Part shown: positions 13,879-60,521 of the stretch, one piece after another
Layout of the letters: the number at the start of each line of letters is the position of its first letter
Numbering within the stretch: the first letter of the stretch is position 1
Assembly: GCF_949628265.1 (NCBI RefSeq)
Contig: NC_088790.1
Coordinates: forward strand, 5,894,545 to 5,958,544
DNA from: Cloeon dipterum
Lineage: Eukaryota > Arthropoda > Insecta > Ephemeroptera > Baetidae
Direction: 5' to 3'
Length of the DNA stretch: 64,000 bases
Notes under the pieces: generated by a model
What the model was told of the DNA's origin: nothing
The model's database searches: none
The model's input: the letters and a program-made list of their open reading frames with translations, nothing else
Made by a program: the position numbers and the translations under genes

Positions 13879-14774
13879 TCAGTTCTTCACTTTGTACTTC
13901 ACCAAGTAGCCTGGGTAAGCCTAAAAAGCAAAACTGGATTAGCTATGGTGTGTCTTTAAAACCATATATTTTTACCTGATAATTATTATAAATAGCATAC
14001 TCTCTGTAATTAACCAGTTTGCGCGAGGGATCCGCCAAAATCGAGTGGTACCCTGAGGGAGGGGCAGATATTCCATTCATAGGTGCGTTGGGTTCATATT
14101 CCTTGCCCAGAGCCACTCGGCAGATCAGCATGAACCGTTCACAGTCAGTGCAAAACGTCTTCTTGTGCGGAGCGCATGGCGTATTGCAACCCTCAAATGT
14201 ATACTGATTGCTCTTCGAGGACAAATCAGCAAAATATATACCTGAAATAATTCATCGTCAAATTAAAACTTAGTTTAATCGATGTATAATTCAATTAAGG
14301 TTTCATGTTACTAAAAATAAATTAAATAGATTAAGAAGAAATAAAGAAGTTAAAAAGCTTATAATCCGAACCTTTGCCAAACATTCCTTTATCGTTTGCG
14401 AAATTCAAATTGAAGCCATCTTCCGTAATTTTATATGCATGCTTAGTGCCGTGGAAAAGTCTAGCTTCTTTCACTCGGCCTCCAATTTCTCTCCTAATCT
14501 GGTCTCGTCGATTCCAATACTTCTCCCACAAATCCGAGTTCTTTACTTGGTAAACCTATACATTTTTCTAAGCGTTACATTCAGGAAGAATGAAATTGAC
14601 GAGCATTAAAAGTCTTACCTCGAGTATTTCATAGCCTGCAATCTTTTTACCATTGTGCTCCACAATCGTGTTTTCCATTTTCTGCCGTGCCCATGACGCA
14701 TGCACGTTGCTCTTGTCCAAAAGTGTCAGTTGGTAGCCATTAACCCAATCTTCAGAATAATTGCCGTCGTTCAT
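13879..14774 (-). CDS. Stand-alone tankyrase-type PARP catalytic domain (copy A)
   Basis: An ADP-ribosyltransferase that transfers ADP-ribose from NAD+ to proteins. Four exons (14619-14774, 14372-14555, 13976-14241, 13879-13920) give 215 residues, just the PARP catalytic fold. The H-Y-E triad is present: His in ARLFHGT (about residue 86), Tyr in GIYFADLSSKSNQY (about 115), and Glu in NYREYAIY (about 194) before AYPGYLVKYKV. The zinc motif CAPHKKTFCTDC (CxxHx4CxxC) and the SSKSNQY and PPSGYHS segments are typical of tankyrases. There are no ankyrin repeats and no SAM domain, unlike tankyrase (over 1000 residues), and no intron could hide them upstream because the ATG exon already begins the catalytic domain. 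A TATA box lies about 125 nt upstream. Divergent from copy B. Poly versus mono activity cannot be read from sequence. Confidence 0.88.
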
Positions 14775-14899
14775 GGTGCTGAAACGGTGGTAACTAATAC
14801 TTAATCAGCGACACTAATTGTAAGAGAAGCACACAGCGCTGCACCCGTGAAATAATCCCTCCTCTCTGCGCTCTACGCTGCTCGAATTTAACCGAATCG

Positions 14900-14906
14900 T
14901 TATATA
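14900..14906 (-). promoter_or_regulatory. TATA box of PARP copy A
   Basis: TATATAA on the minus strand, about 126 nt upstream of the start codon. Transcription would begin near 14872. A good match to the consensus, but position alone supports it. Confidence 0.45.
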
Positions 14907-15748
14907 CAGTGCCAAAAGCTAAAAGTCCAACACAGAGATAATAAGTAGGTGGGTAGTATTCTGGGCCCCTTAGACATAGACTTTCTATGCAAATAAGTCT
15001 TATTGATTTTTACAACATTGCGCAATTATTTTTTTATGAAATGTAAAATTTTTAAATGATATTTATTTTGAATTATAAAAAAGTAATAATTTTCTCTTTT
15101 AGAATCCGACATTATTATCAATTTTTACACTCGAGAACAAACATTTTGTATACTCTAAACAAAATTATGACTTTTAAAGTTATAATAATATCTACTTTTT
15201 GATGCATAATAGTGTTATATAATATACTACATATAAAAAAGAACCAATTTCAAAACCATTCATGCTATCAAGTTTTGATAAAGCTTCATATTCCGTTGTC
15301 AGTAACACTCACACATAACTCTTTTGTTTTACAACTTTGTATTTATTAATTTACTTTTGATTTAACATAAACAAATCATCATATTTTATTGTTCGATTTC
15401 TAAATGAAATATTGATTACTTGAAAATATCATATTTTACAGTAAAAAGGTGTTTGTAGTTTCCCTAAAGACAATTTATGAAATTAAATGCTATATAAAGT
15501 TATTTTGTTGAAATATTATGATGAGAACCACCTTTTGATACTGCCATGTAGCAATAATCAAACTTACTTTTTCTATGCACGGAAAACAAAATCAATCCAA
15601 AAGTGTTATTAACGAATTTATTTGGTGAATTTTTGTTGCACGATATTTTGCAATCTAAATATTTGCCTACCATACATATGTCTTCGTGAGGTTCGTCTTA
15701 TTAATACGCATGCTATTAGACTTTTTGAAGATTGAGACTTTTGTCGGT
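14907..15748. other. Divergent intergenic region between the two PARPs
   Basis: Very AT-rich spacer containing no open frame of note. It separates the two TATA boxes and is the natural place for shared regulatory sites. No repeat or transposon boundary was found. Confidence 0.5.
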
Positions 15749-15756
15749 TATATATA
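15749..15756 (+). promoter_or_regulatory. TATA box of PARP copy B
   Basis: TATATATA, followed about 70 nt later by a good donor (CTGAAAG/GTAAGA at 15828). A matching acceptor (AGTTTCAG at 16278) stands 27 nt before the start codon, so a spliced 5' UTR from about 15780 to 15827 is likely. Confidence 0.45.
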
Positions 15757-16305
15757 CGTGCCCCTCTTTGACTTTATCGCAAAAGTGTTTAGCCTGCCAA
15801 ACGAATTCTCGTTAACAAAACTGAAAGGTAAGATAAAGATTATACAGTCAATATAACACCATCTAAAATCAGGCGAGTTTCCTTCTAATTTTTTAGTTGG
15901 TGCGCTTTAATTTGACAATCGTGCTGTTGTATTATTTTTTTCCCTATTTTTATTCGCTGAAAGGAAGGGATAAATGGTCCATTTTAGCTTACCATAATTT
16001 CTCTCAACTATTCCCATACTAAATGAAATTAATGAAAACTAATTTCAGAAAATACTCTTAGATATTATTTTAAACTATCAGGCAACGCAGTGTAGGATAA
16101 CAATATGCGTGTATTTATTTTGCTTTTCTTATCTTTTTGTTAAAAATTCGTGAAAATTGCCTTGATTTTTCAATAACTATAATGACTTAGACCTCACTCT
16201 GATGCTTGAAATAGAATATAGCGAGAGGGCGCTTGCAATGCTTTTATCAGCGGAGTAAGCGTAAGCTGATAGTTTCAGTGGCCTGGTGCTATATTGCGGC
16301 GCAGA

Positions 16306-17106
16306 ATGAGTCGTGAATTCGTGAAAGGCATTCAACTGGAAGAAAAAAAGCCAGGAGAAATTGATTATCGCTGGGTCACAGACAAAATGCACAAAACAAT
16401 TCACCCCCAATCAAACGTGAGCCGCTATGATATTGTCAAAGTAAGTTTCCAATTCAAGAACTATTTTTTTTAAATTATTTAAACATTAATTTTTTATCTT
16501 TGTGCTCACAGGTTTTAAAAATTTTAAACAGCAAAACTTGGCAACCATATAAAGAGAGACGAAGCAAAATGTATTACGAGCTTGGAAACAAGTATACCAT
16601 TGAAAAACGACTTTTCCACTCTTCACCAGAAGCACTGACAATCGGAAATGATGGGTTCAAACTAAAGTTTGCTCGCAGCTCAGGGTTATTCGGAGCAGGT
16701 CGGTCACATACTTTTTGTATAAAATTTGCGAAAATACTTAGAACGCTACTGTACGTTTAGGAATTTATTTTGCCGAGCACTCGTCAAAGAGCAACAATTA
16801 CTCGTTCGGACTGGGTAAAGGCTGCAAAGCACACAACAATTCGAAATGCTCGCAATGTGAGCGAGTCATGTTGGTTTGCAAAATTGCCATGGGGAAAACG
16901 CACGAGACAAATTCCAGCGGCACGAAGCTGCCACAGGGTTGTCATTCATTGCATTTCACGTCACCAAACCGAGAGTCCGAAATAATTATCTACGATGAAT
17001 CTCAGGTTAGAATTATCAGACGCTCCGTAGTTGTAAAATGGTTAATAATATTTTGTTTTAGGTCTACCCCAGCTACATTGTCAAATACAAAGCGCACTTT
17101 AAATAA
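16306..17106 (+). CDS. Stand-alone tankyrase-type PARP catalytic domain (copy B)
   Basis: Paralogue of the divergent copy A. Four exons (16306-16440, 16512-16698, 16761-17005, 17062-17106) with the same last two exon junctions as copy A give 203 residues. The zinc motif CKAHNNSKCSQC (CxxHx4CxxC), GIYFAEHSSKSNNYSF, and the end VYPSYIVKYKA match the tankyrase catalytic domain. The triad residues are His in RLFHSS, Tyr in GIYFA and Glu in ESEIIIYD. The normally invariant Gly after the catalytic His (HG, nicotinamide contact) is Ser here, so activity may be altered or lost. There are no ankyrin repeats or SAM domain. AATAAA lies at 17148-17153, and the PARG start codon follows 111 bp after this stop codon. 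The 5' UTR is probably spliced. Confidence 0.87.
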
Positions 17107-17147
17107 TAAAATTGTTCTCAAGAAAATGACTGTATATTAATATTAGA

Positions 17148-17153
17148 AATAAA
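17148..17153 (+). terminator. Poly(A) signal between PARP copy B and PARG
   Basis: AATAAA 42 nt after the PARP stop and 65 nt before the PARG ATG. Cleavage here would leave almost no room for a separate PARG promoter. Confidence 0.5.
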
Positions 17154-17217
17154 ATTTTGGATTAATTCGAACTTTTAATTTATGATTTTAATACAAATTG
17201 CAGAACCCCAAGACAAA

Positions 17218-18917
17218 ATGAGTTCCCAACTATATGGCAGCCCAAGGGTAACTATTTATTTTTTGTTCCAGAGACAGATATTAAATAAATAAAAATGAAC
17301 AAAAATAATATTTTTTCCTTGTAGATGAATTCTGGGCCGGGGTCTGTTCAAGAAGTAAGGATATTTATTAGAATTTGTTTCAAAGTGTTTATTCATTTAA
17401 GAATAATTTAGCAAATTCGGAGTGCAGGAAAACGCATCACCAGCAGTCACAAAGAATTTCTCGGGTCGGATGCCAAATTTCCCATGAATAGCCTCCGTAG
17501 AGTGATTGATACTAAGGTATTTAACGAAAATTTGCATCTATTTTAAATGCATAAGTTATTCATGATTTATCTATTAGTCCTCCACAGAAAGGGAACGATT
17601 TATACACAGTACGTTTCCCAAAATCTGCAATCTGGCCCAAGACATTGGCAGCGTTAATCAGCTCATCAGTGAACTGGTGGTTGGAAGTAGTGTGGCGATC
17701 AGACGAATCGATATTGCTCGAATTTTGGCCAATGCTTTTTTATGCACTTTTGAAGACGGGTCGAACATCAACTTTTCCTAGTAATTAATTAAAAAGTTTC
17801 AAGTTGTGATATTTCGTAACATTGCTATTTCAGCCTCTACAACTCTGCTACAGCTCGCAATCCGGGAGTCCAGAAGGAAAAACTTCTGTGTTTGATTCAC
17901 TACTTTGAATCTGTCCTCGATGAAAAGTTTGTTCAAGACAATGAAAGAGTTTTTTTCAAAAAAGAGAGCATCGAGAACTTCAACATTGATGGATTTTATA
18001 ACAAAAAACTCCGCTCCTTGCAGTTAGAAAGAGGGAGCATTTTCGACGCTCACAATACGTTTGCACAAGTCATATTTTCTAACAAGTATTTTAGTTTTTT
18101 TTAAAAAATCGAAAACAAAATGTTAATAATAATTAAAATACAGGTATTTGGGCGGAGGAGTTCTTGGCAATGGCTGTTTGCAAGAGGAAATCTGCTTTTT
18201 GACGTGCCCTGAGCTGCTGGTGCTCAAACTCTTGTGCCCCAACCCGCTGAAAGAAAATGAAGTCGTTATTGTGAAAGATGCACTTCAGTTCGTTAAAACC
18301 TCAGGATACGCAGAGAATATGAAATTTGAAAAAGCCGTGAAGAATGCAATTGGACCAATCATACTGATGGACGCAATCGACTTTTCAAAAGATCCAATTG
18401 CTCAGTGGGAGGAGAGATACGTTTCGAGGGAATTGAAAAAGGCATTCCTCGGCTTCAGTAGAGCTGGCTCAGAGAAGCTAGCGTCTGGATTTTGGGGCTG
18501 CGGAGCGTTTAAGGTATTTATTTAACTTTTAATTCATACAAAATATTATGAAATAGAAGGACTTAAAAGTAATTTTCACTTTTTATTATCAGGGTGATCC
18601 TTGGTTAAAACTCGCAATTCAATGGATCGCCGCGTCTGCGGCTAGCAAGGACTTGGTCATTCATCATATTGGGGATAGAGTTGACGCCCAGCGAATTATC
18701 AGCGACCTGGAAAAATTGAAGGGGAAAGAAATAAGTAAATTCTACTAGATATTATGTTATATGTAGTCATTTTGATTAATTTTTCTTACCAGAACAATTG
18801 ATCGACCTTATTCGAGGTGGGCGCTATTCAACGCAGACTCGAAGTCTGGCAACACCAATTGCTACGCAATCAAAAATTCACCAGTCAAATCGCGCTCAAT
18901 ATAGTAACTATTACTGA
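17218..18917 (+). CDS. PARG: Poly(ADP-ribose) glycohydrolase, catalytic domain only
   Basis: Removes poly(ADP-ribose) by cutting the ribose-ribose bonds. Eight exons (17218-17247, 17325-17354, 17412-17516, 17578-17780, 17834-18085, 18144-18513, 18593-18734, 18793-18917) give 418 residues. The signature GGGVLGNGCLQEE (about residues 210-222) holds the paired catalytic glutamates. Upstream are ILANAFLCTF and a HYFESVLDEK block; downstream are PIILMDAIDF, RELKKAFLGFSRAG and WGCGAFKGDPWLK, all in PARG order. The N-terminal regulatory region of animal PARGs is nearly absent. The first two exons are micro-exons of exactly 10 codons, each beginning with an in-frame ATG, so either could initiate. Directly follows PARP copy B, so shared transcription is plausible but unproven. 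Confidence 0.93.
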
Positions 18918-20546: not shown

Positions 20547-23500
20547 TCAATAGATAGTAGAGCTGAGTACAGCTTTTCCCATTATCTGTTCAAATGTGTC
20601 CTCAATCTCCTGACACAAACAGAAATTGTCTTGCGGCACTACAGCAGATCGGCCAGGTCCTCTCTTGCAAGAATGTCCCGTCAGAGCACCTTGCGAAATT
20701 TCCACTCGCCCCAGTTGCTGCAGGAAATTCATAATTTCTTCCATCAGAGGTGGGAAAGCCTGGCTGAATCTGACCAGGGCGCCTAGCGTCTGTGCATAGA
20801 ATTGCGCCCTGGACGTGCTGGGCAGAATATTCAACAGTGCCGAAAGCACCTGAAGGAAATTATTAGCACGCAGACGTAGGAATATGAAACTATCAATTAC
20901 CGTGATGCAGAGTTTGGCGATAGACAAGGATTTGGGCATCGCGAACTGCAGGCTGAGATGAGACGCCAGGTTGACAGCGAAAATCTGCTTTTCAGTCTCC
21001 GGTTGGCTTAGCATTTCAGGTAGGTAGTCAAGACAAATGTGCATTGAAGGGATTCCTGCCACGGTCACAGGGAGCAATTCCATCGGATAGCCTTGGAAAT
21101 GCACCAGCTTGGCTAGATTTGTGTCGGCTATGAACGCTTGATGCAGGTAGCTGCACACGACACCTCTACACTCCCTGAGTGCCCAGTTCTCGCCTGGTTT
21201 TTCCTGGAAAGCAACAAATTAATTGAAAAATCTCCGCATGAGAATAAGCTCACCTTATCCTGCTTATTCTCCAAGCAGGTTTCCAGCAGGACCTGAATAG
21301 CCGCAGACTCTTGAGAGGCAGTCAAAGCGATCCTCAGATCGTGCCTTTCTTTCATCTCTCTTTCTTCGGCTGTTCCAGCCACCTGCAAGTCCTGCAACTG
21401 CCGCGCCAGGTGCGATCTTGACGCGGCAAGCCCAGCTTGCAAAACTCTCAGCACCACACTCAAAGCAGGTGCGCATCGAAACACTCTTTCGTCGCAACGT
21501 AATACCTGCGAAAAACGTCAGGTTATATTTGAAACCAGAATTTCATAGTACAAAGCATTTATACAAAATGCATAACTTATTTTTCCCGTACAGAAAATTT
21601 ATCCAATGATGGTTAACGATGTTTTGATAGGTTTTTCAGTACATGCTACAACAGCCAAAGGAGAGAGTTTCAAAATAGAAGAACTTCAATGAAGTATATA
21701 TACAGTAAAAATTGCAATTGTTTGATTTACTGTTAATAAGCGGGAAAATCGGTTCCATGTCATATTTGTGAGTGAAATTATTAAGTGGCAAAAATCCAGG
21801 TTAAGGAATGCAGCCCTTCCTGAGACTCTCCCTTTAAATGTTGGCCAGATATGCCACAGCATTGATATGAACCCTTGAAACATGAAAATAAAAAATAAGT
21901 AAATTTAGAGGTCTCAGCCAGCCGCGCTGCGCCGCGCCAATTTTAGATCACATGGGCAGCCGCCGTGAATCTGGCAAAGCTGCGCCAGTCACGCTAGCCG
22001 CCGGTAAAAAAGGATCAAAAATTAAAAGTGCGGAAAAAATGTCGGCCGTTAAGCACTATTAAGCTTCACGTTTGTCAGCCACGCCAGCCACCAATGAAAA
22101 TGGCCAGCAGCCAGGCAAAAAAAAAATGGCTAAGCAGGTGCGCCAGCCGCAGCCTTAAATCTCGCGGCTGAGACCTCTAATTAAATTGGAATATAGGTTT
22201 TATCGCAATTTTAAATTAAACTGCTTTAAGTTTAAACAGCAATTAGAAATGGTCTATTTAAAAATAAGAGGTTTTAATTACCTGCAGAGGATCTAGCACG
22301 ACGTCTTCTTGAGTGAGCGGCACCATGAGAGTGTCATGACCTGGCTCAGGCAGCAGAAGGGCATTAACAGTCATCACCCACAAACTCCTGGGAAGAACCG
22401 TGTTCAGTCGTAGCCAAACCCTTTGATACAGTTCTGGATAGAAGAGATTGATTATTTTAATTTTATGAGGGTTTTGTTGATCAACCTTGAACTTGACGAG
22501 GGACATCATATCCCAAAATCGCCTTGAACTGTGATGTGATCATCTCAGCGTGGCTCCAAGCCTCTGTCGGGGGCATGTCTGCCAACCTCTGAAGAACCTG
22601 GATCGTTCTCAAAGGATGGGCCGACACTTCGACCAAAGCTGAAAGTTTATGATGAAGCAAAGGTGCTGCAATTTAAGCTATAGCCAAACCTTTAAGAATG
22701 TCATCAGAGTTAAGGGGCAGGTTGGAAATGGTTGTGCCAAGCGAGGGTGGCTCAGTCTCAAACCAGTCGTTGACCAAGGAAAGGTGGGGGAAATGCGTGG
22801 CCAGCAGTTTGAGAAGGGGAGCAAACAATCCTCCCAGGTTTTGCTGCTCTCGCTGTGCTTGCTGCAGAAGGTACTTGATGGGCAGTTGCGCTAGGAATTC
22901 CGAGGAGTATGCCTTAGCATTTCTGTGTTGAGAAGAAAGCCTCAGGTCTTCATAGTGAAGGACGTAGTAGAGCAGGAGCAACTGCGATGTTAGCGAGGGT
23001 TGTGATTCCTTTGAGCCAGACCTAGATAGACACAAATTTTCAAGTTAAACCATTGCATTCAAATAAATATTTCAAACTAACTGGAATGTTGACGCGTTGA
23101 AAACTCTTTTAATTTCAGCCTCTGAGATGGGTTCGTTTGTGGTGTGGGTTTGTTGGTCCAGAGCCTTGTTAGCTGGCACCAAAATCGAACCGACATACAC
23201 CTCCACGAGGGATGGGAGGACAGGATGCAGGGGAGAATCGCTGAAGCAAATTTGCCTGTAGATCCAGTCTTTGATTGGAACCCTGTGTTTGGAGAAAGCT
23301 CTGCTTTTCAACAATTGGTAAATGCAGTGCACAGGGAGGAAACCCGACGTTTGTCCAGATAAATTTGCAGTAACTGGTACTTTGACTGCATGAGCGGTGA
23401 CAACCTAGAATAAAATTATTTTTAACTGTAAATATAATTAATTTCTAAATGATCTTTGATTACTTGTTCAGTGAAAATATCATTCACGAAGATTCCCCTA

Positions 23501-25304
23501 ATTTTATTCAGGTTGTTTGGCCTGATGTTGATTTTCATTCCCAGGGTCGAGCAGACCAAGTCGCAAACTGCTGACAGCTGGTTGGAGTGGAAGTGGATAG
23601 CCATCAGCAAAAGCATCTCACCAAAGGACGCTTTAACTCCACTCGCACTGTTTAGGAGGGAGCGTTAATTCATTTAAGGCAGTGAAATATCCAAAATGAG
23701 CAAACCTTTCAAAATAGGCTTCCTCTTGGACAAGCCACTTCACCCAATCCACTGATTTTTTCTCGTGCTCTGGTTGAATCAAAGAGGGACAAGCGATTAA
23801 CATGCAAAGGCCAAGTGACACAAAGTGCACTCCGGCTACAGAGGGTGGTGGGTGGCTTGTAACAAGCTTCACTATAAGCGTCACCTCCTCGTCTTGGAAT
23901 CTGCAAATTGATTTTAAAATTCATATTATTCAAATATATTCCTAGATTTATTTCGGAAAATTAAAATCAGTTTCTGAGTGTAATTAGCAACACATAAATC
24001 AATGTCTTACTTGATCCCAGCAATTCCTCTCAGAGCACAAAATAACCTTAGCATTACAGAAGCCTGTGCAACTTTTGAAGCTTCCAGCTGACCGCCTGAA
24101 GGCACTAACGCCTCCAGTTGTCTTGTGAGTTCAGCTCGGAGAGCTACAAGCGCTGTGTGCGACTCCTGTTTCCTCTTCTGGCTGTTTCTGACAAAGTGAG
24201 AGAACCACTTGGAGTTTGGGTCATTGCTTATTAGGAGTCCAGATACAAATGCGACTATGTCGGAGCCATCTTGGCCTGGCTCTGGCATGGTGAGCAGTAT
24301 CGCAAGCGCTGGCATCCGACCCAATTCAACCTAATCAGGCGTGAGAATTGAGTTTCATCGCAGTTTATCAAAATTAACATACGCATTTATCTCTAACATC
24401 AAGGGCCTGGCTAGGATTCATTTGGCACAGCAGTCTCAATGCTTTCATTCGTGCCTGAAAACCAGGGTTTTCATCCTCTTGCTTGTCCCCTGTTGCTATC
24501 AAAGATGTGCACACTGGAAAGAATACGGTGCCATTTTATTTTAAGAAACTAGCACAGAAATACCTTCTCTGAAAGAATCTGGCATGTTTGCTACAAGTCT
24601 GCAGATGATCCAGGGACCAAAACGAACGTGCAGCAAGTATTCCGCCACTTCAGTTATGTTTAGTAATGCTGGAAGCTCAGCCAAAGCGATGCTCAAAATG
24701 TCGCAAATCTTTTCTTGGTACACAGGGGGGTCAAATAGCTCTGAGTATATAACTCCTTGCTCTCTTCTTTCATTAGCCTTTGAGAGAAATTAAATCAGTT
24801 GAACAGTAAATTGATATTACATATTTGTAATTACTTGGTATTCTATGCGGAAGAGTTCAAAGAGAACCAGTCTCATGCTTTGGAAATTGTCACCTCTTTC
24901 GAATTCAAATGACAAGCCAGTCGGCTGAGCCATAGCACTTTCATTGCTGCCTGGATGGGATCTGAAATTTCAATTATTTAAAACAAAATAAAAGTATACT
25001 GCTAACACGGCTACCTGAATCTAATTTGCAGCTCTCTTCTGACGTCTATTTCCAGAGCGTGGAAATCTATGGAGAGCCATGCTACTATGGCATTCACTGC
25101 CTCAATTCCACTGAGCGCGGCCAAAATTTTGATTCTTTCATCGACACGTTTTTTAGACGTGTCCTGAAGAGGAAGAAGGCTGATCCGAGACAAGGTTGGC
25201 AGAATGGGTCGTATTGCGGCTGCAGAACACGCTGAAATCGCTTTCACGTCCAGTTCTTGGATTGCTTTAAAGACTTGGGGAGAAACTGTAATGACCCTGT
25301 CCAT
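20547..25304 (-). CDS. IntS2: Integrator complex subunit 2
   Basis: Nuclear subunit of the Integrator complex, which cleaves snRNA and stalled RNA polymerase II transcripts. Fourteen exons close in frame: 25015-25304, 24835-24961, 24564-24777, 24383-24513, 24011-24330, 23706-23900, 23464-23647, 23082-23404, 22690-23021, 22486-22638, 22282-22433, 21254-21505, 20901-21203 and 20547-20849. They encode about 1092 residues (human about 1200). Recognisable family blocks are GIEAVNAIVAWLSIDFHALE near residue 75, LCQMNPSQALDVR, ASGVKASFGEMLLLMAIHF, NTVLPRSLWVMTVNALL and HLSLQFAMPKSLSIAKLC. The intron between exons 10 and 11 is only 52 nt. The intron 21506-22281 holds a MITE-like insert. The first ATG lies 17 bp inside a short leader. 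A complete, ordinary single-copy gene. Confidence 0.95.
21905..22180. mobile_element. MITE-like insert in IntS2 intron
   Basis: A 276-bp GC-rich block inside an AT-rich intron, ended by inverted TTAGAGGTCTCAGCC copies (left at 21905, right ending 22180). The interior is built of repeated GCCAGCC- and GCGCCAGC-like words. It has no coding capacity. A target duplication is not clear; flanking bases are TTA/TAA-like. Confidence 0.65.
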
Positions 25305-26161
25305 CCTGTCTTGTGCGAGGAAATACTCAGGAGGCTAAAAAGACCTAACCACACCTACAAACTGGTCTGTTGAGAAATTTTCAGATGTTTTCTTTGAAAG
25401 TCTTGTCTGGTCCAGCTTTATTTTTGTTTGCTTTTATCGAAACCAATTGAAACCGACAACTATGCCGGTAACCGGTACTTTTATGAGAATATTGGACTTA
25501 AATATTTGTGATTTTTCCTAAAATAATTTTGCCTTGCTTATTAAACGTCGCAAAAAATGGCTCATAAATTAAAAGTTTTTCAAGGCCTTTTTATAAAATG
25601 ATAACAAATGAAGAATACATAATTTATGAAAATCCAAATCTGATGTAGCGACATAAATCTGGATTTAACCGATACAGCTGATTGTTTTTTAAAACCGGCT
25701 AAAAAACCAATTAGAGTGTGTGCCTGTGCCAATCAGTGAGATTGACTCCTTTGCGCATGCGTCGTACTACGCCCCGTTCATTTTTTCCTGAAAGCTTCAA
25801 AAGGTCGTTGTCCAGCTTTAATGGCGTCGAACAAAGACTCGTAAGGAAGCTTTCCTTCGTTTCACATTTTGCAATCTCAGTCTGGTAAGATATCTGGCTT
25901 TTTAGACTGTTGCGAAATCATCTTTCAAATCAAGCAATTGTCCTCGGCCTATAAGCATGCAATCGGGAAAGCACGTGCGGGAAAAGCACCTGTTGTGTTG
26001 GTGCGTGGAGAACACGGGGGCTTTAAATTGTATACAAACAAGTTTGACGTGACGTCTCACTACATATTTGTACTTATTCGCAACACTAAATATCATTGCA
26101 GAATGAGACTGAACTGACTGGCTGAAAGCTGAAATAGGAAAATCTCCGTCCGTTTACAGAA
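25305..26161. other. Divergent promoter region of IntS2 and M6
   Basis: About 850 bp between the IntS2 start codon and the first possible M6 coding exon. It must hold both promoters. No repeat or further gene is seen; open frames at 25869-26117 overlap on both strands and lack coding character. Confidence 0.5.
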
Positions 26162-26973: not shown

Positions 26974-29900
26974 ATGGCAGATCGCCGTCGGTGGTCGCAG
27001 CACCACGAGCCGGAGGATGCGGCCGAGGAGGTAGAGGCCCTGCGTGGCTCTCAGGACATTTACCCTTCGTACTCGCAGGACCAACTTTATCTCAACAAGG
27101 GTGCACTTTCCTTTATATATAATCTTACTAGTTTAATTCTTGTTAAAACGTTGCACGGATTTAAAAACACGCAGATTGAGTCGAAAATGTGTCTCGTTCA
27201 TTCATTTTCCTCATTTTGTGAGTCACAGGTGTTATCTCGCTGCCTCAGATAATCTTGTTTGGCGCATGTCCACGCAGATGGTTGTAGTGTTGTTTCTGTA
27301 TTATTTTTTCTTATTGGCGCATCAAGCGATCCACGGACGGTGCTTGGTTAGGGGTGCAATTTGAGACGTCCTCGGCACGCTCTGCAGGCCAAGCGAAAGG
27401 CCACAGAATAGGTCAAAGAACTTAAATTATTCAAATGAGACCGGAGAAGTGCTCAAATATCCTCTGATGCGCGCACACACCCAAGACGGCGCGGCGCGTT
27501 TACTTTCAAATAGAAATGCTCGGAAGAGTGGCAATCAACGGAATAGGAGATTTGGTCGGTTTGTTCTTGAGTGCCTTTTTGATTTGAAACCGACAAAGTA
27601 AATCAAGCGTAGTCAATACTAATGTTTACACATGTTCAAAAAGGTTTCAAGCTGAATGAGTTAAACGATCAACCTTTTTAAAGGCTTAAAATGATTGATA
27701 TTTTGTTGGAAGTTGTTTCACTTTTAAGAAGCGTGATAGAGGCGGTTTGATCTGATACAATGCACGTTAGTCATTATTTTTGTTTCCATGAATAAAATGA
27801 TTATTGCATTAGGGGGAGGGGTCAAAGCACTTCTCTTACTGAAAAGGATAACATTTTATTTTCTAATGTGTAGATATACATATCAGTGTTGGCTTATCTT
27901 ATTGTACCACCCTGTATTAATTGTTTTTTGCCACTTAATTTGACCTATTTTCGTACTCTTAAAATTGCACAGTCGGAATTTATCACTTCTTTAGGTAGAA
28001 ATATTTTAACCGCATTTCTAAATTCATTTGAATGTTCCACCCTTACTAACGCTTGTTTCATAAACTTAAGCAATTATTGCCATAACAAAAGTCTATTTTT
28101 TTAAATATTTGGAAAGAGTTGGAGAGCCCTAATATCCACAATGTCATACACATTTTTGTCTACAGATAAAATCACAATATATAAGCCGATTACAATATTG
28201 CTAAAAATAACACTCTATGAAAAATAGGAAAAAAATCACCAAATTTAAAAATCATCGGTTCCAGCTAATCACCAAAGAAAGACTCGTTTCAACCAACGAG
28301 AACAAGTCCCATTATTTCATCACAAAAGATATTTCAACTTCGTGAAAAATGTTTTTTTTCATTCGTTTTCCTTCTTCATTCATTCAGTCTTCTGAATAAA
28401 GAGTCTAGACTATTGGTCTTATGGAATAACAACATTCTGCCGTAAGAAATGAATGATTACCTTTACCCCACGAATCACGTTTTCTTTAATGGATATTCAA
28501 TAAAAATCGTATTTTTGAACAGAAAATTTCACGTGCATAAAATTAATTAATTATAAAAACCGGGGTTTTACTGAAATTAATTTTGTTTATAAATGGGGTT
28601 TTTGCCAACACACTGCATCCATTACGTATGCTTTAGTCTTTCCGTTATAGACTAAATGATAATATAAGGTCTAAAAGTTTTCCAATTTGCAACTAAAAAT
28701 ATCGTCATATTTTTTCAATAAACCAAGAGGCTTAGCAAAAATACAAATAATTTTAATTTTGGAGTAGTGGAGCTCCCCTTTAACATCAGAATTTGTTTCG
28801 ATTTGCTCAGGTTGCTGCAGCGATTTGCAGGGCAGGCTGCCCTATGCCACCCTCATTGCCACAGTCATGTGCGTGTCTGGAGTGGGCATATTTTGCTTCA
28901 CTGTCTTCAGAGGCATCACACTGACAAATCTCATGTTGGAAAATGTCTTCCACTTCCGTCTCGCTTGGTAAGCTATTTTTTCCTATTTTAAATTTAAGAA
29001 ATAACTCCGTAAATCGCTTTGCGGGTAAAATTGAAACGTAAGCATAATTTTATGTGAGAAATTAAGTCGATATTTAATTACAATTTTTAAGAAATTGATT
29101 TTTCTTCTGCTAGTACTACACTTCAAAAAATATAATTCTTAAGGGTCAAAATTTTCTATTCCTATGTAAAAGCAAATACAACGAAACAAACTAACTGATC
29201 TGAACTCTAGGCTAGAGCCGACGCAGCTAGGTCTGGTGATCAGCGCCGCTTCAATGGCCGCCCTTGGCCTGATGATGCTATTCGTCGGTTGCCTGGCGAC
29301 GGGGGCGACCAGGCGCAGAGTCTACAGAGGCCACACCAGCAGGGTCGGCGGGCGTGTGACCTGCGCCATCTTCATGGTGCTCACCTACCTTCTGCAGCTT
29401 GCTTGGCTGGCTTTGCTCATTCTGCTGGTGCTCATCGCTGCCACCTACTCCACCTTCAAGGCCCTCTGCAATGACAAGTTTGAGCATCCCGAGAACGAAT
29501 GCATCAACTTTGAGATGTTCCGTAAGCATTTGTTTTTATCAGACTGATACATTTGATGGTAATCTTGGATTTGCTCCGCTCTAAAGCGCAATATTTTAGA
29601 CATACAGTAGAAAATTTTTAATCTAGCAATGTTTTAAAGTTACAGACTGGACAATAAATTTTACATTTAAAACCCCAATTTTTGCTCAATCCTGATAATA
29701 TTGGTTATGTAGACTCCCCGTGACGAGACAAATCGACTGATGGGTCGTTTAACTCTCCAAAATTCTAGGAGATTTTATGATACTATCCATAATTATGGAT
29801 CTTTTCAGGTCCTTATGATGATTAAAATTTGTTGTATTTATTTATCATTTTTGTTATTTAATTGAATTTATTGATAGCTTTTTGTATGTACAAAATACGC

Positions 29901-59688: not shown

Positions 59689-60521
59689 ATGTCGTCAGTA
59701 GAAGAAGCAGCCAACGTTAAATTCAGTATTACGGCCCTGCAGGATGGGTTTGAAAAATGTCTGGAAGGTGAAGATGACATTCACGTCGACAAATACATAT
59801 ACGCTTACAAGGAGCTATACAAGTACGTTTGTTATAATTATTATTAAAATAATTGTATGTATTCAACAAAAAATCCTTGCTTGCAGATTCATCTTGCTCA
59901 TGGGCAAGCTGTTTAGCTTCGTGGGCAGTGACATAAAAGCCAAGCTGGAGATATTAGAGGATTTTAGAAAAAGAGACTCGGCAGGAAACTTTCTGACAGT
60001 GAAGAAAATGATTTTTTATGAATTGGAACAAGATTTGCTGGACAAGAAAGGCTACATATCCGCCTGCAGGACAGTCTTACGTCTGCACAGAGGTCTTGGT
60101 AAGACTGATCACGATCAAACTAAATATTCTCTTATTAAATAATGAAACCGCTTTAGATTTCATCAGTCAGTTTCTTCAAAAAGTTGGTGAAATCGAAGAC
60201 CAGGATGGCACCTCTACTGTTTGTCAAGACGCGTACAACGTCACCTTATCCAATCACCATACTTGGGTGATTCGTAAAGCAGCTGGTGTTGCAATGTACG
60301 CTTTACCAACTAAGGAGAACCTTCTGATCAGAGTAAGATCATCTAATAAGGGCAATTATGACGATGTGCTGATACTTAAAAAATTCTAGTTGTTTGGTGG
60401 AGACCAGGAAGAGATAAAACTCGCCAAGAAAAACTTGCCTGACATGCTAGCGGCCAGCCGAGAAGTGCACAGACGCACTCAAAAACTTCTTGAAGCTCAC
60501 AACTTGCTCCTACTACCTTGA
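59689..60521 (+). CDS. CPTP: Ceramide-1-phosphate transfer protein (GLTP fold)
   Basis: Cytosolic lipid carrier that moves ceramide-1-phosphate between trans-Golgi, plasma and other membranes. Four exons (59689-59822, 59887-60098, 60157-60332, 60390-60521) give 217 residues (human 214). The GLTP-domain blocks are in order: LYKFILLMGKLFSFVGSDIK with the headgroup Asp-Lys region, KKMIFYELEQDLL, CRTVLRLHRGLDFISQFL with the Arg-x-x-Arg-Leu-His pair typical of phosphate-binding CPTPs, CQDAYNVTLSNHHTWVIRKA with the conserved Trp-Val-Ile-Arg, then YALPTKENLL, and the C-terminal end AHNLLLLP. The family's acidic N-terminal segment (EGEDDIHVDKYIYAY) is present. Complete and ordinary. Converges on the CNT gene with about 325 bp between stop codons. 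Confidence 0.95.

What the first reader, a model, noticed from the sequence alone, without database searches (positions are those of the whole stretch)
13879..18917. Writer-eraser ADP-ribosylation cluster: two mini-tankyrases next to a mini-PARG
Two divergent genes encode bare tankyrase-type PARP catalytic domains (215 and 203 residues) and the third gene, directly downstream of the second, encodes a PARG catalytic domain (418 residues). Sequence shows the H-Y-E residues, the CxxHx4CxxC zinc motif and the GGG...QEE signature directly. From established knowledge, tankyrase and PARG are normally single, large, unlinked genes with targeting domains. The physical linkage of opposing enzymes, all stripped to catalytic cores, suggests an accessory ADP-ribose module, perhaps for antiviral, stress or symbiont responses (inference).
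Basis: partly seen in the sequence, partly recalled or inferred. Interest (0 to 1): 0.9.

Follow-up and report, generated by a model that had tools for sequence, protein, structure and literature searches.

The report
Tankyrase-derived mini-PARPs beside an altered PARG
In this insect, genes for the bare catalytic part of tankyrase (an enzyme that tags proteins with ADP-ribose) have multiplied, and two sit beside a relative of the enzyme that removes the tag, although that neighbour has lost a residue thought to be needed to remove it.

Summary
The window has three intact spliced genes. A (215 aa, minus) and B (203 aa, plus) are bare tankyrase-type PARP domains with H-Y-E and the zinc motif; G (418 aa, plus, 111 bp after B) has PARG helical and macro domains with GGG...QEE.

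The genome changes the meaning. A tankyrase with ankyrin and SAM exons and a canonical PARG lie elsewhere. Besides them are 29 mini-tankyrase places (20 modelled, A and B included) and about 11 PARG places, G included. Eighteen mini copies form one fast clade; five intact C3 copies show purifying selection. On C3, six mini-tankyrases lie with a PARG and a truncated PARG copy, so the linkage is not a one-off.

"Opposing enzymes" is doubtful here: G has Ile for Asp737 and for Phe902; B has HS for HG. The D737N-type mutation abolishes activity but not ligand binding (PMC3519477, passages). I favour writer plus PAR-binding pseudo-eraser at C5 and a truer writer-eraser pair at C3. Function, perhaps defence, is inferred.

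The parts
13879..14774 (-). Gene A, mini-tankyrase, 215 aa, 4 exons: 14619-14774, 14372-14555, 13976-14241, 13879-13920. H87, Y116, E194; zinc motif from C136
   Evidence: Spliced model without stops; PF00644 1.9e-22; tankyrase-2 in PDB 9.5e-38; exon 2 is 184 nt as in the own tankyrase, exon 3 is 266 nt against 138 + 128 nt there
14775..16305 (.). 1.5 kb between the divergent start codons of A and B; no PARG-like remnant found there
   Evidence: Spliced PARG search of 14800-16300, both strands, best score 35
16306..17106 (+). Gene B, mini-tankyrase, 203 aa, 4 exons: 16306-16440, 16512-16698, 16761-17005, 17062-17106. H81, Y110, E181; HG is HS
   Evidence: PF00644 5e-17; tankyrase-2 in PDB 3.2e-32; residue table
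17107..17217 (+). 111 bp between the stop of B and the proposed ATG of G; AATAAA at 17105 and 17148
   Evidence: Sequence and script
17218..18917 (+). Gene G, PARG helical plus macro domain, 418 aa, 8 exons: 17218-17247, 17325-17354, 17412-17516, 17578-17780, 17834-18085, 18144-18513, 18593-18734, 18793-18917. First two exons are tiny and uncertain
   Evidence: PF05028 3.9e-50 and PF20811 2e-15 (run on a 419 aa first version that differs by one residue); PDB PARG 1.3e-40
18063..18189 (+). Active-site stretch of G across an intron: AQVIFSNK then GGGVLGNGCLQEE; Ile203 (codon 18072-18074) stands where PARG has Asp737
   Evidence: Residue table over 11 own copies and PDB 8adj; protein positions, genome positions counted from the exons

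Best explanation
The trio is one outpost of a lineage-specific burst. The 3' end of the tankyrase gene, encoding only the PARP domain, was copied as DNA with introns and then multiplied over C1, C3 and C4 as well as C5. PARG's catalytic part multiplied in parallel, and at C3 and C5 the two lie head to tail. A, and with less certainty B, are free intracellular ADP-ribosyltransferases that no longer depend on ankyrin targeting or SAM filaments. G most likely no longer cuts poly(ADP-ribose) but may still hold it, acting as a reader or brake on the tags that its neighbours make; the C3 PARG, with its catalytic residues in place, would be a true eraser. Shown: gene structures, family membership, expansion, purifying selection on the C3 mini-tankyrases, altered residues. 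Inferred: enzyme activities, joint regulation, and a role in cell-autonomous defence or stress control.
For: Models and domains. Own-genome expansion of both families, while macrodomain (5 places) and ARH (0 places) searches show none. One mini clade apart from own and human tankyrase, 100/100, 18 rows. H-Y-E kept in 16 of 20 modelled mini copies. Pairwise dN/dS 0.10-0.23 in 10 pairs of five C3 copies; omega 0.143 for these five and 0.131 for 15 copies. Second linkage, and a truncated second PARG 78% identical in DNA, at C3. D + GGG + QEE kept in 7 of 11 modelled PARG copies, the C3 one among them, G not. Bare Aedes tankyrase PARP domain is active in vitro, and tankyrase knockdown raised chikungunya titre in mosquito cells (PMC10223269: abstract and passages).
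Against: No expression or biochemistry. Synonymous change is saturated or nearly so for A and B and the PARG codon tree is very long, so omega there is rough. The pair at C5 and the pair at C3 are not shown to be one block: G + C3 PARG is best in two trees (80/86, with an earlier C3 model; 68/59, macro domain only) and not in two others (AU 0.222; 0.465); B's best sister is a C4 copy (89/87). By my listing 13 of 15 mini-tankyrase clusters and 7 of 9 PARG clusters are not linked to each other. G keeps Glu755, Glu756, Asn740 and Tyr795, and another residue could stand in for Asp737.
Confidence: 0.5

Rival explanations
1. Writer-eraser module: A and B tag targets, G removes the tags, and they are kept together because imbalance is harmful.
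For: Same-strand B then PARG order, repeated at C3 with mini-tankyrase then PARG; GGG...QEE intact in G; linkage unlikely under random placement.
Against: G lacks the Asp737 and Phe902 equivalents; D738N in bovine PARG is reported dead (PMC3519477, passages). Seven of nine PARG clusters are unlinked.
Confidence: 0.2
2. Neutral block: two multiplying families happened to become neighbours once, the block was copied, and linkage has no function.
For: Tandem duplicates can stay together without selection (general knowledge); tree results allow shared descent; no other flanking gene stands out as shared; most clusters are unlinked.
Against: Copies are old (B against its best C3 copy 48% identical; G against the C3 PARG 43%) yet the order is kept at both sites.
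Confidence: 0.25
3. Decaying duplicates: the window genes are on the way to pseudogenes.
For: G has the longest branch in the full-length tree and odd active-site residues; other copies in the genome look broken, for example p1e, p1f, p4b and C1_7452, and p1b, p3c and p3h carry a frameshift.
Against: 16 exons with GT/AG splice sites and no internal stop over three genes; H-Y-E and zinc ligands kept in A and B.
Confidence: 0.05

Closest known systems
Tankyrase (PARP Clade 4)
   Same: Catalytic domain, zinc motif, H-Y-E; A's introns match those of the own tankyrase, which has one more
   Different: No ankyrin repeats or SAM found; Clade 4 is characterised by 15-18 ankyrin repeats, SAM and PARP, and its members are said to be very alike (PMC2964712, passages). 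Here 29 extra places diverge fast
PARG
   Same: Helical and macro domains, GGG...QEE in 8 of 11 modelled copies
   Different: G has Ile for Asp737 and for Phe902; its Phe at Glu727 is shared with three other extra copies. PARG multiplication as such is common in eukaryotes (PMC4245714, passages)
Vertebrate expansions of PARP9-15 tied to antiviral defence
   Same: Lineage expansion of ADP-ribosyltransferases (recalled; only starts of abstracts seen in the listing)
   Different: Those are Clade 3 with macro, WWE or zinc-finger parts (recalled); these are bare Clade 4 domains with PARG relatives
Bacterial DarT/DarG
   Same: Gene for an ADP-ribosylating enzyme next to one with a macro fold (recalled; PMC9967889 seen only as a listing)
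   Different: Bacterial, DNA target (recalled); toxin-antitoxin logic untested here

Membership tests
Tankyrase | PARP domain nearest to tankyrase | tested here: met
   Best PDB matches are tankyrase-2 for A and B
Tankyrase | H-Y-E triad and CxxHx4CxxC zinc motif | tested here: met
   A and B both; 16 of 20 modelled mini copies keep H-Y-E. B has HS for HG
Tankyrase | Ankyrin repeats and SAM domain in the same protein | tested here: not met
   Only PF00644 in A and B, while the own tankyrase locus has both. Upstream exons are not excluded by RNA data
Tankyrase | Makes poly(ADP-ribose) | not testable with these tools
   No enzyme assay; the bare Aedes domain is active (PMC10223269, abstract)
PARG | PARG_cat_N and PARG_cat_C domains | tested here: met
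   PF20811 2e-15, PF05028 3.9e-50
PARG | GGG-X6-8-QEE signature | tested here: met
   GGGVLGNGCLQEE in G; signature as given in PMC4245714 and PMC6414514 (passages)
PARG | Third acidic residue (human Asp737) | tested here: not met
   Ile203 in G; Asp in 7 of 11 own copies and in PDB 8adj. Human numbering carried over by motif spacing, no human row aligned
Conserved writer-eraser module | Linkage kept across independent sites or species | tested here: inconclusive
   Two sites in one genome; common descent unresolved; other species not held

The most novel reading that the evidence does not exclude
This insect lineage has built an ADP-ribose based effector system from tankyrase: dozens of untethered PARP domains with different targets, answered by a co-amplified set of PARG-derived erasers and dead PARG readers, with writer and PARG genes travelling as a linked block, a parallel in insects to the vertebrate PARP-macrodomain arms race.
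Probability: 0.25. Interest if true: 0.82.

Novelty: new variant of a known kind. Interest (0 to 1): 0.6.

Why it matters
Tankyrases are described as very alike across animals (PMC2964712, passages), with a known duplication in vertebrates (PMC9688111, passages). A burst of about 29 bare tankyrase domains with a parallel PARG burst would give natural variants of a drug-target domain that may work without SAM filaments, a test of what the ankyrin and SAM parts are for, and a candidate insect defence built on ADP-ribose. A natural PARG lacking its third acidic residue could be a ready-made PAR-binding reagent.

Tried and rejected
Rejected or empty. (1) Viral or mobile origin: no relatives in viral contigs for B alone or for the two family alignments; A's introns are shared with the own tankyrase. 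(2) My first thought that A and B lack the catalytic Glu was wrong: the Glu is in xEYxxY. (3) Whole-segment duplication of C3 and C5 with flanking genes: tblastx of window 1-40000 against C3:7.54-7.57 Mb gave 100 hits, 25 of them outside 13.8-19.0 kb, 10-42 aa long each; I saw no gene among them. (4) Duplication carried by a shared mobile element: blastn among the loci showed a few pairwise matches outside the genes (for example window 21992-22182 with a C1 locus, and a longer tandem repeat within C3) but none common to the copies; a limited test, with the list for other pairs cut at 150 bases. (5) Naming the organism: insect odorant receptor family at 5 places; PRANC 0, MurB 0, BioB 0, TTATTGGG triplet 0; so, from general knowledge, a winged insect, not further placed. 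Five contigs of 33-43 Mb make up about 187 of 190 Mb. My early notes guessed chalcid wasp and I later considered mealybug; neither is supported. (7) Literature: I saw no report of this expansion in the listings of searches. One search found no paper; the longest results were cut (20 listed of 341, 15 of 339, 12 of 793, 12 of 37); the library lacks most subscription papers and bioRxiv.

Rows dropped: the tree leaves out p1f; that leaves out p1e and p1f. Codon sets leave out p1b, p3c, p3h (frameshift), p1e, p1f, the tankyrase, C1_7452 and C3_5585 (frameshift in the model) and C3_7566 (model length not a multiple of three). Nine of 29 mini-tankyrase places were seen only as matches, not modelled, and the C2:14.97 Mb PARG place was not modelled.
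Full report
WHAT IS THERE. The window lies at C5:5894545-5958544 of a 190 Mb genome with five contigs of 33-43 Mb. Between 13879 and 18917 are three spliced genes. A runs leftward in four exons (215 aa). B runs rightward in four exons (203 aa). G follows B on the same strand, 111 bp after its stop, in eight exons (418 aa). The splice sites are GT/AG and there is no internal stop.

THE GENOME AROUND IT. A tankyrase locus with ankyrin, SAM and PARP exons lies at C1:22.94 Mb (the whole gene was not spliced). A canonical PARG lies at C1:28.54 Mb: its modelled part scores 311 bits against PDB PARG, while the best PDB scores are 143 bits for G and 161 for the C3 copy. Besides these, the PARP family profile and searches with A and B give 29 places with tankyrase-like PARP domains, counting A and B: 6 on C1, 14 on C3, 7 on C4, 2 on C5. 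I modelled 20, of which at least three carry a frameshift (p1b, p3c, p3h) and three more look degenerate (p1e, p1f, p4b); nine are matches only. PARG-like places beyond the canonical one number about 11, G included, of which 10 were modelled, plus a truncated fragment. Macrodomain hits are few (5 places) and ARH hits are absent, so among the families searched the burst is in tankyrase-like and other PARPs and in PARG. Counts are lower bounds by the tool's own note.

ORIGIN. In a tree of 18 mini-tankyrases with the own tankyrase and human tankyrase-2, the two true tankyrases sit together on short branches and the 18 mini copies form the other side, 100/100. That fits one event, then expansion at a far higher rate. 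Exon 2 of A and of the own tankyrase are both 184 nt, and exon 3 of A (266 nt) equals 138 + 128 nt of the tankyrase, which has one more intron: copying was at the DNA level. Some C1 copies lack one of these introns, and three copies near C4:28.74-28.77 Mb match in one long frame and may be intronless. A groups with two C4 copies (98/96). B lies near the C3 cluster, best beside a C4 copy (89/87); holding B with the C3 copies is not rejected (AU 0.143), holding A with B is weakly rejected (AU 0.046). So A and B probably did not arise from each other at this spot.

LINKAGE. On C3, six mini-tankyrases lie within 7544361-7563475 (one with a frameshift), and a PARG, intact over the part modelled, follows from about 7565.4 kb on the same strand. 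After the first of the six, at 7546198-7546618, is a PARG 5' fragment with 78% DNA identity to the intact copy; beyond it similarity stops, and an M13-peptidase-like frame (below Pfam's cut-off) lies near 7548.3 kb. The mini-tankyrase plus PARG order therefore occurs at C5 and, whole and truncated, at C3. By my listing 13 of 15 mini-tankyrase clusters and 7 of 9 PARG clusters are not so linked. Random placement gives two linked PARG clusters in 1 of 20,000 draws and one or more in 210, but the sites may share descent. Whether they do is open: G pairs with the C3 PARG in two of four trees (80/86; 68/59 for the macro domain alone) and not in the others, where the pairing is not rejected (AU 0.222; 0.465). 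No other flanking gene stands out as shared.

CONSTRAINT. Five intact C3 copies differ from each other with dN/dS 0.10-0.23 in 10 pairs, at dS 0.8-1.8. The codon-model omega is 0.143 for these five, 0.131 for 15 mini copies, 0.033 for A with three others, 0.104 for B with four others and 0.083 for 8 PARG copies. Synonymous change is saturated or nearly so for A and B and the PARG tree is very long, so all but the first figure are rough. H-Y-E is kept in 16 of 20 modelled mini copies; the exceptions are p1a (H-Y-V), p1f (H-F-E), p4b (H-Y-K) and p1e (none).

WHAT SPEAKS AGAINST A SIMPLE WRITER-ERASER PAIR. In the residue table (human numbering carried over by motif spacing from the positions in PMC3519477) G has Ile at Asp737, Ile at Phe902, Thr at Tyr792, Phe at Glu727, and Phe for Asn in the NWG motif. 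The change at Glu727 is shared by three other extra copies, and Tyr792 varies too; Ile at 737 and 902 and the NWG change are G's own, though two other copies have Val or Asn at 737 and the broken C1_7452 has Tyr there. Glu755, Glu756, Asn740 and Tyr795 are kept. PMC3519477 (passages) states that D738N and E756N in bovine PARG, equivalent to D737N and E755N in human, abolish activity without much effect on binding of an ADP-HPD analogue. Seven of 11 modelled PARG copies, the canonical and the C3 ones included, keep D, GGG and QEE; G does not. In B the glycine after the catalytic His, which in PARP enzymes contacts nicotinamide (recalled), is Ser; the own tankyrase and 18 of 20 mini copies have Gly. 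The window trio is thus the less likely of the two sites to be a normal writer-eraser pair.

HOW IT MOST LIKELY WORKS. Shown: bare tankyrase domains, some of which selection has clearly kept. Supported from elsewhere: the isolated Aedes aegypti tankyrase PARP domain makes poly(ADP-ribose) in vitro, and tankyrase knockdown raised chikungunya titre in mosquito cells (PMC10223269, abstract and passages). Inferred: A and B modify proteins freely in the cell; G holds or shields the modification rather than removing it; the C3 PARG removes it; rapid diversification reflects conflict with pathogens or another fast-changing partner. I put 0.5 on this reading of the C5 trio, 0.2 on an active writer-eraser pair, 0.25 on linkage without function, 0.05 on decay.

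COMPARISON. Clade 4 PARPs were characterised by ankyrin repeats, SAM and PARP domain, from animals in which the insects kept were Diptera (PMC2964712, passages). A later survey mentions PARP-only Clade 3 proteins in Tribolium and common PARG duplication, and reports no bare tankyrase family in the passages seen (PMC4245714). A tankyrase survey lists Drosophila for insects in the passages seen (PMC9688111). A PARP domain thought to be host-derived occurs in a baculovirus (PMC9503650, passages). I saw no report of this expansion in the listings of searches, several of them cut. The mini-tankyrases are tankyrase-derived but fail two defining features of tankyrase (ankyrin, SAM); G is PARG-derived but fails the third acidic residue. 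I file the whole as a new variant of a known kind.

Noticed in passing
G000 C2:4095079-4095348, C2:35501534-35501794, C2:35503274-35503528, C2:35888968-35889183: A second set of PARP copies with the motif NWRLAGSRVGHRHGLGVYFS, not tankyrase-like, also multiplied.
   Followed up: partly
G000 C4:28743928-28767148: Three mini-tankyrase matches in single frames of 257-262 codons, perhaps intronless copies.
   Followed up: no
G000 C3:5579430-5587778: Two PARG copies in tandem, 78-85% identical in DNA over three stretches.
   Followed up: partly
window 17095-17230: Two AATAAA signals at or after the stop of B and only 111 bp to the ATG of G: very compact, shared transcript possible.
   Followed up: no
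window 20547-25334: Probable INTS2 (Integrator subunit 2) gene on the minus strand downstream of the trio; one exon, 22676-23044, matches PF14750 at 1.7e-32, the rest is my reading of the frames.
   Followed up: no
window 29170-29544 and 59702-60139: Exons of a myelin-proteolipid-family gene (PF01275) and of a glycolipid transfer protein gene (PF08718).
   Followed up: no
G000 whole genome: Only 5 exon matches to the insect odorant receptor family PF02949, which seems few, though exon-wise profile search is insensitive.
   Followed up: no
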